Positions 52,174 through 56,831 of a stretch of 64,000 bases of DNA are shown one piece after another. Origin of the DNA: Burkholderia pyrrocinia (GTDB lineage: Bacteria; Pseudomonadota; Gammaproteobacteria; Burkholderiales; Burkholderiaceae); NCBI RefSeq assembly GCF_001028665.1, contig NZ_CP011504.1, forward strand, positions 2,170,001 to 2,234,000. The letters run 5' to 3'. The first letter of the stretch is position 1. Each line of letters begins with the position of its first letter. The position numbers and the translations under genes were made by a program. The notes beneath the pieces are model-generated. The model was not told the origin of the DNA and made no database searches. It saw only the letters and a program-made list of their open reading frames with translations.

Positions 52174-52782
52174 TCAGGCGGCGATGGCTTGCCGGGCTGC
52201 CTGCCCCGGCTCGATTCCTAGTGCCGCAAACGTTTGCGGATCAATATCGATCCAGCACGCGACCACCAGACGCCCGTCCACCTGTTTCGGCGGGCCTGCG
52301 CGGTGCGCGTGTATGCCGATCCGGCGGAACAGCCGCTCCATGCTCGCGAACGTCACGCCGATCAACTGCCGCGCGCCAAGCTGCGCCGCGCATTCGACGA
52401 CGGCCGCGAGCATCGGCCGCACGGCCCATTCGGCATTGCCCGGCCCGCCGTCGTCGTCCGTTGCCGCGAACCTGGACAGCTCCCAGACGGCCGCCGATTG
52501 CGGCAGCGGCATGTCTTCGGCGATCAGGTCGGCGAATAGCGACTTCAGCAGGTACGGGCGCGTCGTGGGCAGCAGGCGCGCACATCCGCACATGTCGCCG
52601 CCGGCGTTTCGCGCGAACACGTAGACGGTATCGTCGCGATCGAACTGGTCGCGCTCGAAGCATTCGTTCGCCGACGGGAGCGCCCACCCGAGTTGTTCGA
52701 CGAACACGCGGCGCCGATAACGCCCGAGATCCGCTGCAAGTTCGTGTGGTAACCGCCCTTCTTCGTGAACGAAGGTCCGCAT
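52174..52782 (-). CDS. cepI: Acyl-homoserine lactone synthase CepI
   Basis: 202-residue LuxI-family enzyme making N-octanoyl-homoserine lactone from S-adenosylmethionine and acyl-ACP. The conserved core is intact: RRRVFVEQLGWALP, the acidic FERDQFDRDDTVYVFA, CARLLPTTRPYLL, and WELSRFA, followed by the acyl-chain pocket region. The sequence closely matches CepI of B. cenocepacia as I know it. Start MRTFVHEEG has a GAGG site. A cep box is centred 70 bases upstream. The gene runs away from rsaM and cepR. Confidence 0.97.
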   Translation of the reverse strand: MRTFVHEEGRLPHELAADLGRYRRRVFVEQLGWALPSANECFERDQFDRDDTVYVFARNAGGDMCGCARLLPTTRPYLLKSLFADLIAEDMPLPQSAAVWELSRFAATDDDGGPGNAEWAVRPMLAAVVECAAQLGARQLIGVTFASMERLFRRIGIHAHRAGPPKQVDGRLVVACWIDIDPQTFAALGIEPGQAARQAIAA

Positions 52783-52843: not shown

Positions 52844-52861
52844 AACTGGTAACTCTTACAG
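52844..52861 (-). promoter_or_regulatory. cep box upstream of cepI
   Basis: On the minus strand CTGTAAGAGTTACCAGTT, the known CepR-binding sequence of the cepI promoter, is present complete. It is about 62 bases before the cepI start codon. Its integrity implies that the loss of function, if any, lies in the receptor and not the target. Confidence 0.9.
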
Positions 52862-52992: not shown

Positions 52993-53436
52993 TCACTGGA
53001 GCGTCGGACCGGCATGATAGGCGTCGTTGCGACCGAGCAGGGCCGACGCGACGGCGGCGGGCCAGTCGATGCGGGCGAGCCGTGCGGCGAGTGCGACGGC
53101 CGTTTGGAACATGCCGATGTCGGCACCCGTGGCGTCGACGGCCATCACATTGCTGCGGACGTCGCCGCCTGCGATCACGAACGTGCCGGTTGCGCGTTCG
53201 AGGTACCAGTCCCAGCCGATCGTCACGTAAGGGGCGCCGGCACCGGCTGTACGCTGCCATTCGGTATAGCCGGCGACGCGTGCGTCGATCGCGTTGTCGC
53301 GTAGTTCCGCGAGCAGCGATGAGTCGAGGCAGCTTGTGACATGGTCGAGCGCAAGCACGGCCAGTGCGCCTTCAGACAGGCGCACGTAGCCGTCCGGGGA
53401 CGGGCCGGGGACCGAGTGCAGCAAAGGTGAAGTCAT
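52993..53436 (-). CDS. rsaM: RsaM, negative regulator of quorum sensing (DUF4902)
   Basis: 147-residue protein lying between cepI and cepR, matching RsaM of Burkholderia (DUF4902). It starts MTSPLLHSVPGPSPDGYVRLSEGAL and has the conserved YTEWQRTAGAGAPYVTIGWDWYLER region. RsaM lowers AHL production in B. cenocepacia, by an indirect mechanism. The gene is intact and divergent from cepR with only 73 bases between. A lux-box-like palindrome lies in that interval. Confidence 0.92.
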   Translation of the reverse strand: MTSPLLHSVPGPSPDGYVRLSEGALAVLALDHVTSCLDSSLLAELRDNAIDARVAGYTEWQRTAGAGAPYVTIGWDWYLERATGTFVIAGGDVRSNVMAVDATGADIGMFQTAVALAARLARIDWPAAVASALLGRNDAYHAGPTLQ

Positions 53437-53509: not shown

Positions 53510-54230
53510 ATGGAACTGCGCTGGCAGGATGCCTATCAACAATTCAGCGCCGCGGAAGACGAGCAGCAGCTCTTCCAGCGGATCGCCGCCTATTCCAGAC
53601 GGCTGGGATTCGAATATTGCTGTTACGGCATTCGCGTACCGCTCCCGGTGTCGAAGCCGTCGGTCGCGATCTTCGATACCTATCCGGACGGCTGGATGGC
53701 GCACTACCAGGCGCGGAACTACATCGAGATCGATTCGACGGTGCGCGATGGCGCGCACAGCACCAACATGATCGTCTGGCCGGATGTCGACCGGATCGAC
53801 CCGAGCCCGCTTTGGCAGGACGCGCGCGAATTCGGGCTGTCGGTGGGTGTCGCGCAGTCGAGCTGGGCGGCCCGCGGTGCGTTCGGGCTACTGAGCATCG
53901 CGCGCCACGCCGACCGGCTCACGCCGGCCGAGATCAACATGCTGACGCTGCAGACGAACTGGCTCGCGAACCTGTCGCATTCGCTGATGAGCCGCTTCAT
54001 GGTGCCGAAGCTGTCGCCCGCGGCGGGCGTCACGCTGACCGCGCGCGAGCGCGAGGTCCTGTGCTGGACGGCCGAAGGCAAGACCGCATGCGAAATCGGC
54101 CAGATCCTCAGCATCTCGGAGCGGACGGTCAACTTCCACGTCAACAACATCCTCGAGAAGCTCGGCGCGACGAACAAGGTCCAGGCGGGTCGTCAAGGCA
54201 ATCTCGGCCGGGCTCATCGAGGCGCCCTGA
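53510..54230 (+). pseudogene. cepR: AHL-responsive regulator CepR, +1 frameshift near the C-terminus
   Basis: The first 226 residues are a normal CepR: the AHL-binding domain (WxxxY and YxxxD region; GWMAHYQARNYIEIDSTVRDG) and the GerE HTH up to ISERTVNFHVNNILEKLGATNKVQA. In the 239-residue CepR I know, VVKAISAGLIEAP follows. Here the codons after GCG read GGT CGT..., because three G (54187-54189) stand where two would restore the frame; the expected stop TGA is at 54228-54230 in the shifted frame. The last helix of the DNA-binding domain is lost, and the frame stays open to 55576, antisense to mgtC. An SD of GGAG precedes the start. A sequencing error cannot be excluded. Confidence 0.8.
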
Positions 54231-54271
54231 CGCGGCGAGGGCGGCGGCGAATACGGCTGCCGCCACACCGC

Positions 54272-54979
54272 TCACTCCATCATCGGCTCCGCTTCCTTCG
54301 CGGTCCAGCTCACGCTGGAAATGCTCTTCTCCATGCTGATCCGGCTCGCGATCTGCTCGAGCTTCTGCTGATCCTTCGGATGCAGCTTCAGCGTCGCGGT
54401 CACCTTCAGGCGGTCCGGCTGGTCGGGCACGTCTTCGCTCGTCAGGCTCTGGAACGACAGCGGCTTCGCGTACATCGAGTTCGACAGCAGCGTGCGGATG
54501 TGTACTTCGTCGGCGGCCAGGCAGATCACGGTGATCTGGTATTCGCGCACGAGATCGGCGTTCGACACGGGCGTCGCGTTGATCGCCTGGCTGACGCCGC
54601 GCAGCACCGTGTTGGTGAGCAGCACGACGCCCGTGCCGGCGAGCGCGGGCACGTAATGGCCGGAGCCGGCCAGCACGCCGACGGCGGCCGAACACCACAG
54701 CGTCGCGGCCGTGTTGATGCCCTGGATCGAGCCCTTGTCGCGCATGATCACGCCGCCGCCGAGAAAACCGACGCCCGACACGACGTACGCGGCGATCTGC
54801 GTGACGCCCGCGACGCCGTTGCCGGTCAGCACGCCGAGCGTGACGAACAGGCACGCGCCGCTCGCGACGAGCGTGATCGTGCGCAGGCCGGCCGTGCGCT
54901 GGCGCATCTGGCGCTCGAGGCCGATCGCGACGCCGCAGGCGAACGCGGTGAAAAGACGGAGTGCGAAATCGAAAGTCAT
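54272..54979 (-). CDS. mgtC: MgtC/SapB family protein
   Basis: 235-residue membrane protein. Five or so hydrophobic segments fill the N-terminal 140 residues, starting FALRLFTAFACGVAIGLERQMRQRTAGLRT, with the family motifs GVGFLGGGVIMRDKG and INTAATLW. A C-terminal ACT-like cytosolic domain follows. In B. cenocepacia the gene next to cepR is an mgtC needed for growth at low Mg2+ and in macrophages; identity of position supports the assignment. Start MTFDFAL has an AGGAC site. Confidence 0.92.
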   Translation of the reverse strand: MTFDFALRLFTAFACGVAIGLERQMRQRTAGLRTITLVASGACLFVTLGVLTGNGVAGVTQIAAYVVSGVGFLGGGVIMRDKGSIQGINTAATLWCSAAVGVLAGSGHYVPALAGTGVVLLTNTVLRGVSQAINATPVSNADLVREYQITVICLAADEVHIRTLLSNSMYAKPLSFQSLTSEDVPDQPDRLKVTATLKLHPKDQQKLEQIASRISMEKSISSVSWTAKEAEPMME

Positions 54980-55286
54980 GGTTGTCCTGCCGTGCAAGGA
55001 GCGCATGCCGGCTCGCGTCGCTGCGGCGTTATGCCGAAGGCGACGCGACGAAAGCCGTCAGCGCGCGGTACTGTACCGCGCGTATGCGTCATTCAGTGTG
55101 AAACGGGAGGCGTGCGGGCTCGCGGAACGCGAGCCGGGGCAGGAGAACTGCGTCGGACAGGCGTTCAGGCGGCAAGCGGCGCACGCAACGGAGTGCTGCA
55201 ACTGTCCACGATGGTTCCTGAAGGAAGAATGGGCGGCATTCTAGTGGGCGGCGAGCGCATGCGTCAACCGCCCGGGGGCGGTTGCG
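54980..55286. other. Intergenic region with a GC stem-loop
   Basis: 307 bases. A perfect 8-bp hairpin, GGCTCGCG (55117-55124) and CGCGAGCC (55128-55135) with a 3-nt loop, lies about 150 bases past the end of the efflux operon. There is no T-run. No gene is supported. Confidence 0.4.
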
Positions 55287-56831
55287 CTACTGCGCCGAGC
55301 CGATCGTCCCGGTCGCGAGCGCGAGCGCGGCAGCCGCCGACAGCGCACCGGCATAGCTGTCGACCTCCGCATTCCGCGCCGCGAGCAATTGGCTTTGCGC
55401 GATCGTCGCATCGGTCACCGAGCCGACGCCGTTCCGGTACGCGGTCAGCGCCGCATCGTAGCTCGTCTGCGCGGCATCGACGAGCGCCTTCGCGGCGTCG
55501 TGCGACGCGAGGCTGGTCTGTACCGCGTTCTGCGCGGCAACGACCTGGCGAACCGCTTCCTCCTTGGTCCGCGTGAGACGCGCGGATGCGCTTTCCGCAT
55601 CGTTGCGCGCCTGCATCAGCACGGCCGAGCGCAGGCCGCCGTCGTACAGCGGGATCGTCAAGCCAAGGAACACGCCGCCGCCGTAGCGGCTGCCGTTCAG
55701 GTTGACCGTCGGCGCCTGGTCGCCGATCGCGGGCAGTGCGGAGATGGCGGTGCCGCCGCTTGCATACGACGTCGAAGCGGACAGGAATATCTTCGGCATG
55801 AACGCGGCTTCGGCGGCCTTGATCTTCGCGCGATTGGCTTTTTCGAGCGCAAACGCGCCCTGCAGGTCGGGGCGGCGCGCGATCGCGTCCGACACGATCG
55901 CGTCGACCGACGAACCGAGCGCGGGCGGCAGCGCCCGTTTCGGCAGCGCGGCGATCGTCGGCTTCGACAGCGGCGAGATGCCGAGCGCTGACACCAGTGC
56001 GAGGTAACTGTCGCTTTCCGTGCCGCTCGCCTGCACGAGCGCGAGGTTCGCCTGCGCGCGGTTCTGCGTCGCCTGCGCAAGCTCGACGACCGTACCGACG
56101 CCATGCTTGAGCCGCGCGCGGGACGCCGCGAGGATCGCGTCCGCGTTCGCGAGGCCCTGCTGCGCGCTGAGTGCGCGCGATCGCGCGGCTTCGTACCGGT
56201 AGTACGCGACGGTCACGTCGTGGATCACTTGCTGGTGTACAGCCGTGAACGCGACGTTCGACGCGATCGACGCCTGTTCGGCCGCTTCGACGCGCGCGGC
56301 GCGGCCGCCGAAATCGAACAGCAGCCATTGCAGCGACAGCGCCGAGATCGTGCCGTGCACGGTCGTGTCGCTCGACGAGTCGCCGAGTATCGTCGACGTC
56401 GAGCCGTGGCTCGCCTGGTACGCGCCCATGGCCGTTGCGGACAGCTTCGGCAGATAGGCGGATTTCGCGATGCCGACCGCGAGCGCCGCATTGCGCGCGT
56501 CGTTCCATGCGATGCGCGTCAGCGGGTTCGCCGATTCGGCGAGGTCGATCAGCTCGGGCAGCGTGTACGCATGCGCGGCATCGAGCGCGGCAGGCGGCGG
56601 TACCGACGCGAGCGCAGGCGTGGCCGGCAGCGTGTAGTCGTGCGCGCCTTGCGCGCTCGCGCGCGGCGGTGCCGGCACGATGTCGCCCGCGGCCGACGTT
56701 TGCGGTTGCCACGGGCGGTCGGACGCCTCCGGCGCCAGATCGATCGACGACGTCGCGCAGCCGGCCAGCGCGACGGCGGTCGCGAGGGCGGCGGCGGCGA
56801 TCGAGGCGGCCGGCGGTTCAGGTAGGCGCAT
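55287..56831 (-). CDS. TolC/NodT-type outer membrane efflux lipoprotein
   Basis: 514-residue outer-membrane factor. The lipobox is VALAGC. Two structural repeats are visible, each with long helices of Ala, Gln and Arg heptads (VFGGRAARVEAAEQA-type and LRSAVLMQARNDAESASARL). It is the last gene of the four-gene efflux operon, overlapping the FUSC gene by 14 bases. It would form the exit duct for the HlyD/FUSC pair. Confidence 0.88.
   Translation of the reverse strand: MRLPEPPAASIAAAALATAVALAGCATSSIDLAPEASDRPWQPQTSAAGDIVPAPPRASAQGAHDYTLPATPALASVPPPAALDAAHAYTLPELIDLAESANPLTRIAWNDARNAALAVGIAKSAYLPKLSATAMGAYQASHGSTSTILGDSSSDTTVHGTISALSLQWLLFDFGGRAARVEAAEQASIASNVAFTAVHQQVIHDVTVAYYRYEAARSRALSAQQGLANADAILAASRARLKHGVGTVVELAQATQNRAQANLALVQASGTESDSYLALVSALGISPLSKPTIAALPKRALPPALGSSVDAIVSDAIARRPDLQGAFALEKANRAKIKAAEAAFMPKIFLSASTSYASGGTAISALPAIGDQAPTVNLNGSRYGGGVFLGLTIPLYDGGLRSAVLMQARNDAESASARLTRTKEEAVRQVVAAQNAVQTSLASHDAAKALVDAAQTSYDAALTAYRNGVGSVTDATIAQSQLLAARNAEVDSYAGALSAAAALALATGTIGSAQ

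What the first reader, a model, noticed from the sequence alone, without database searches (positions are those of the whole stretch)
54182..54230. cepR carries a one-base insertion that destroys the last helix of its DNA-binding domain
Seen: the reading frame matches CepR to residue 226, then three G at 54187-54189 shift it by one; deleting one G restores the residues VVKAISAGLIEAP and an immediate TGA, giving 239 residues. Known: the GerE C-terminal helix carries the dimer contacts needed for DNA binding by LuxR-type receptors, and QS-null cepR alleles arise in natural Burkholderia. Inferred: this isolate is probably CepR-defective while still holding intact cepI, rsaM and cep box, so basal AHL made by CepI may have no working cognate receptor here. 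A slippage-prone G-run is short (3), so reversion could be rare.
Basis: partly seen in the sequence, partly recalled or inferred. Interest (0 to 1): 0.85.

Follow-up and report, generated by a model that had tools for sequence, protein, structure and literature searches.

The report
Frame-broken quorum-sensing receptor gene cepR
In this Burkholderia genome the gene for the receptor that senses the cells' own crowd signal is thrown out of frame near its end, probably a recent loss of the receptor while the signal-making gene stays intact, although a sequencing error is not ruled out.

Summary
Window 53510 onward reads as CepR for 226 codons (complete AHL-binding domain; GerE matched to 53 of 57 positions), then leaves the CepR frame at 54185-54190, inside the C-terminal helix, and stays open for 688 codons, antisense across mgtC. 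Of 64 Burkholderia genomes with the gene, 60 read to a normal end, none of these with the shifted tail. cepI, rsaM and the published cepI cep box are unbroken; cepI is the only AHL synthase above the family cut-off.

The break looks young: 14-18 silent against 1-3 replacement codon differences from the two nearest genomes. It is not generic indel noise: 1 clear case in 335 comparable genes. Without reads, a single base-call error cannot be excluded.

New here: three other genomes carry independent cepR breaks, one in the same helix, and a database protein shows a fifth near it. The excess over neighbouring genes is suggestive only (3 of 63 against 2 of 186, p = 0.10).

Most likely a recent loss-of-function allele: an ordinary kind of event, of moderate interest for its recurrence.

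The parts
53510..54187 (+). cepR in frame, codons 1-226; Autoind_bind at residues 18-158, GerE from residue 175 (positions 2-53 of 57)
54185..54190 (+). patch in which the frame shifts by a net +1 against relatives, inside the last helix of the GerE domain
54188..55576 (+). shifted continuation, 462 codons, antisense to mgtC; probably meaningless
54228..54230 (+). TGA in line with the stop of the relatives' cepR, out of frame here
52174..52782 (-). cepI, AHL synthase, 202 aa, unbroken
52844..52861 (-). 18 bp identical to the cepI cep box printed in PMC1766932 Table 2
52993..53436 (-). rsaM (DUF4902), 147 aa, unbroken
54272..55006 (-). mgtC-family gene, 244 aa, unbroken, read through in antisense by the shifted frame

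Best explanation
A real, recently arisen frame-shifting mutation in cepR. Shown: the frame leaves CepR inside its C-terminal helix and continues into a long foreign tail; the AHL-binding domain is complete; cepI, rsaM and the cep box are unbroken. Inferred: the product loses the dimerisation half of the last helix and gains up to 462 unrelated residues, so it is unstable or cannot pair its DNA-binding domains on the cep box; CepR-dependent genes are then not induced and cepI gives only basal signal, because its positive loop needs CepR.
For: 60 of 64 genus genomes with the gene have a normal end. GerE is cut at position 53 of 57 against 57 of 57 in the B. cenocepacia ortholog L008. Solved relatives (RhlR, SdiA, QscR, LasR) align through this helix. 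Codons 1-225 show 14 silent and 3 replacement (G033) or 18 silent and 1 replacement (G034) differences, so the gene was under constraint until lately. Frame breaks are rare in this assembly: 1 clear case in 335 genes. The G run is short, not a long homopolymer. Three other genomes have independent cepR breaks.
Against: No reads were available. No second assembly with this allele was found. Recent mutation and base-call error leave the same trace in codons 1-225. No activity was measured, and the shifted protein could keep part of its function.
Confidence: 0.6

Rival explanations
1. Base-call or assembly error in the deposited genome; the strain's cepR is normal.
For: A single isolated shift in an otherwise constrained gene; no other protein in the databases searched with the window's read-through tail; 1 case in about 365 kb of compared coding sequence would also fit a few residual errors per genome.
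Against: Low indel background in two 400-kb stretches; only a 3-G run; independent breaks of the same gene in three other assemblies, though these could be errors too.
Confidence: 0.26
2. A real allele whose product keeps AHL binding and pairing by the N-terminal domain and acts as a signal sink or dominant-negative partner of intact LuxR-type proteins, as TrlR does to TraR.
For: Complete Autoind_bind match; C-terminal deletions of TraR are dominant negative and TrlR blocks TraR (PMC3907764, passages); one further AHL-type LuxR is intact in the genome (L002).
Against: There is no second, intact cepR copy in this genome (one search lists only weak other matches for G000); L002 is only 27% identical to CepR; a 462-residue foreign tail argues for an unstable protein.
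Confidence: 0.08
3. A switching or mutation-prone site: the last-helix patch of cepR is broken repeatedly and perhaps reversibly.
For: Breaks in or next to the last helix in the window, in G015 (L115, a different event within a few nucleotides, a short local duplication) and in P0008 (residue about 219).
Against: Two of four random breaks would lie within 6 nt in 10% of cases. P0008 was found with the window's shifted tail in the query, so it is biased toward this site. The other two breaks lie near codons 133 and 148. No long repeat or homopolymer is present.
Confidence: 0.04

Closest known systems
CepR of the Burkholderia cepacia complex (LuxR-type AHL receptor of the CepI/CepR system)
   Same: Gene order, AHL-binding domain, first 226 residues (96-99.6% identical to many orthologs), cep box before cepI
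   Different: Leaves the frame inside the last helix of the DNA-binding domain; no normal end
Broken cepR genes of G061 (B. cepacia LK29, L041/L063), G026 (L075), G015 (L115) and protein P0008
   Same: Frame breaks in the same gene; in the three genomes cepI and rsaM are unbroken
   Different: Independent events near codons 148, 133, 228 and 219
TrlR of Agrobacterium tumefaciens, a TraR-like protein without its DNA-binding domain (PMC3907764, PMC13043044, passages)
   Same: LuxR-type protein keeping the AHL domain and losing the C-terminal function
   Different: TrlR is a second gene beside an intact traR; here no second cepR copy was found
lasR loss variants of Pseudomonas aeruginosa (recalled; mentioned in an abstract start)
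   Same: Receptor lost, synthase kept
   Different: There shown in many isolates with phenotypes; here one genome, no phenotype

Membership tests
CepR / LuxR-type AHL receptor | N-terminal autoinducer-binding domain | tested here: met
   PF03472, positions 2-147 of 149, 122 bits
CepR / LuxR-type AHL receptor | Complete C-terminal GerE DNA-binding domain with the dimerisation helix | tested here: not met
   GerE to position 53 of 57 against 57 in L008; frame lost after residue 226
CepR / LuxR-type AHL receptor | Locus with cepI, rsaM and a cep box | tested here: met
CepR / LuxR-type AHL receptor | AHL-dependent activation of the cepI promoter | not testable with these tools
   needs a reporter assay
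Recent pseudogene | Reading frame disrupted against orthologs with a normal end | tested here: met
   60 of 64 genomes end normally
Recent pseudogene | Little decay in the rest of the gene | tested here: met
   14 silent/3 replacement and 18 silent/1 replacement codons
Recent pseudogene | The break is present in the organism, not only in the file | tested here: inconclusive
   no reads; low indel background; no second assembly with the allele
TrlR-like dominant-negative receptor | Present beside an intact copy of the same receptor | tested here: not met
   G000 shows one strong cepR match and weak short ones; the other AHL-type LuxR is 27% identical to CepR

The most novel reading that the evidence does not exclude
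The last-helix patch of CepR is a recurrent site at which Burkholderia lineages independently disable or reshape their quorum receptor while keeping the AHL-binding domain, cepI and rsaM, leaving signal-making cells with a CepR that still binds AHL and acts as a sink or dominant-negative partner.
Probability: 0.07. Interest if true: 0.6.

Novelty: new member of a known kind. Interest (0 to 1): 0.3.

Why it matters
If real, this genome is a natural signal-on, receptor-off strain in a genus where CepR controls protease, siderophore and biofilm traits. With three other broken cepR genes among 63 relatives it would suggest that receptor loss recurs across Burkholderia, as lasR loss does in Pseudomonas (recalled). 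It also warns that a single species-representative genome may misstate a species' quorum sensing.

Tried and rejected
Considered and rejected: that the shifted end is a normal variant (0 of the 60 genomes with a normal end have it; two of the three other broken copies, L063 and L115, read the same phase at their ends); that the 688-codon frame is a meaningful fusion gene (16 of 24 relatives with a normal cepR end also have a phase open for 264-399 codons downstream); that the gene is an old decaying copy.

Led nowhere: a protein search with the as-found 688-codon frame gave 4 hits, none with the window's tail. Plasmid records gave 4 matches at 87.5-92.9% identity; I did not check their frames. 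In one search (PMC11898562) cepR stood only in the reference list. One piece (from L075) was badly chosen and matched nothing.

Dropped before a count: L042-L049 (8 of 45 loci, distant). One search flagged 17 of 159 and 19 of 162 genes before start sites were trimmed; after trimming 2 of 159 stayed, cepR and one gene with a divergent end, and 0 of 163 in the other direction. In one search the one flag of 176 lay at nucleotide 5 (start artefact), and 1 of 176 in the other direction was left unresolved. In one search, flags of 24-91 nt with many small gaps in diverged genes were taken as alignment noise; the clear ones were L041 cepR (1 of 37) and L011 mgtC (1 of 34). In the neighbour counts G038 mgtC (pieces on two contigs) was left out, and cepI matches under 69% identity (G014, G051) were not taken as orthologs.

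Full report
What is there. The window lies in G000, a 7.96-Mb genome in 4 contigs, at C2:2170001-2234000. Around the finding the order is cepI (52174-52782, minus), rsaM (52993-53436, minus), cepR (from 53510, plus) and an mgtC-family gene (54272-55006, minus). Pfam gives Autoind_synth, DUF4902, Autoind_bind plus GerE, and MgtC; the gene names follow from this, from the relatives and from the published gene order (recalled). The 18 bp at 52844-52861 are, on the minus strand, identical to the cepI cep box in Table 2 of PMC1766932 (passage seen).

The break. Read from ATG 53510 the frame matches CepR through residue 226 and leaves it in the patch 54185-54190. Autoind_bind is complete; GerE is matched to position 53 of 57, against 57 of 57 in the B. 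cenocepacia ortholog L008. The frame then runs to 55576, 688 codons in all, antisense to mgtC and into the end of the next minus-strand gene. In 16 of 24 relatives with a normal cepR end some phase downstream of cepR is likewise open for 264-399 codons, so the length says little.

Relatives. Of 45 loci, the 37 closest (L005-L041; L040 is Trinickia, the rest Burkholderia) were read: 36 reach a normal stop, 35 after 239 codons and one after 244; the exception is L041. In the genus search 65 of 65 genomes gave a match, but G014 only a weak one. Many named loci and G genomes are the same assemblies, so the two counts must not be added. None of the 60 normal genomes has the shifted tail; L063 and L115 read the same phase at their ends.

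Further variants. A protein search with the as-found 240 residues (19 proteins at E up to 1e-120 among 1266 candidates) returned P0008, 285 aa, whose frame leaves CepR at residue 219 (GerE to 46 of 57), and P0021, which lacks 16 residues of the AHL domain. P0008 came up with the shifted tail in the query, so it is a biased sample.

Is there an excess? Frame breaks in the neighbours, window's genome included: cepI 0 of 62, mgtC 1 of 63 (G005), rsaM 1 of 61 (G051). cepR 4 of 64 against 2 of 186 gives p = 0.04; without the window, which was chosen for its break, 3 of 63 gives p = 0.10; cepR 4 of 64 against cepI 0 of 62 gives p = 0.12. This is suggestive only. In the four broken genomes cepI and rsaM show no break (for G015 rsaM, 135 of 147 residues aligned). 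G051 is the opposite case: cepR normal, rsaM in two frames, no cepI ortholog found. Whether the breaks in G015, G026 and G061 are real was not tested.

Real or error? Against G033 (95.2% and 95.5% identical over the two stretches), 400 kb around the locus flagged 2 of 159 genes in G000, cepR and one with a divergent end; 400 kb on C1 flagged 1 of 176, at nucleotide 5, a start artefact. That is 1 clear case in 335. The assembly is not indel-ridden, yet one residual error cannot be excluded. Codons 1-225 differ from G033 by 14 silent and 3 replacement codons and from G034 by 18 and 1: constraint held until lately, which fits a young mutation and an error alike.

What it does, most likely. The lost residues belong to the last helix of the DNA-binding domain. 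Q225, A226, V227, K229, G234 and L235 are invariant even against a 27%-identical paralog; a review speaks of interaction between the C-terminal dimerisation helices in passing from the inactive to the DNA-binding form (PMC4211393, passages). Solved relatives such as RhlR, SdiA, QscR and LasR align through this helix. In TraR, C-terminal deletions are dominant negative, and TrlR blocks TraR (PMC3907764, passages). CepR with AHL activates cepI (PMC12838280, passages). I infer that the product does not activate, leaving basal AHL. The genome has no other AHL synthase above the cut-off. It has one further intact AHL-type LuxR, L002, with no synthase found beside it; two more Autoind_bind proteins lie at L003/L004.

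Verdict. It is a new member of a known kind: receptor loss in a LuxI/LuxR system.

Noticed in passing
P0001, P0002, P0010, P0011, P0012; L106 (G033:C3:457937-458656): A second, intact cepR-like copy on G033 C3 is 239 of 239 identical to the C-terminal part of P0002. By eye the same protein is fused exactly at its Met1 to unrelated N-terminal pieces in P0001, P0010, P0011 and P0012: chimeric records, constructs, or a mobile element whose edge sits at that ATG. No transposase family among 8 of its neighbours in G033 scanned.
   Followed up: partly
P0021: A CepR protein with 16 residues missing from the AHL-binding domain (window residues 105-120) and a normal end.
   Followed up: no
G051:C45:128075-128502 (next to L096): rsaM lies in two frames and no cepI ortholog was found, while cepR is normal: the reverse of the window.
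   Followed up: no
window 52993-53436: RsaM of the window's genome is unusually isolated: nearest of 29 relatives 90.5% identical, third most isolated of 30 (median 94.9%), while CepI and CepR are 99% or more identical to their nearest.
   Followed up: no
L011 (B. arboris LMG 24066), G005:C1:387753-388485: The mgtC-family gene beside cepR lies in two frames.
   Followed up: no
L003/L004 (G000:C2:2057601-2059142): Two divergently transcribed Autoind_bind proteins lie side by side; the only synthase of the genome above the family cut-off is cepI.
   Followed up: no
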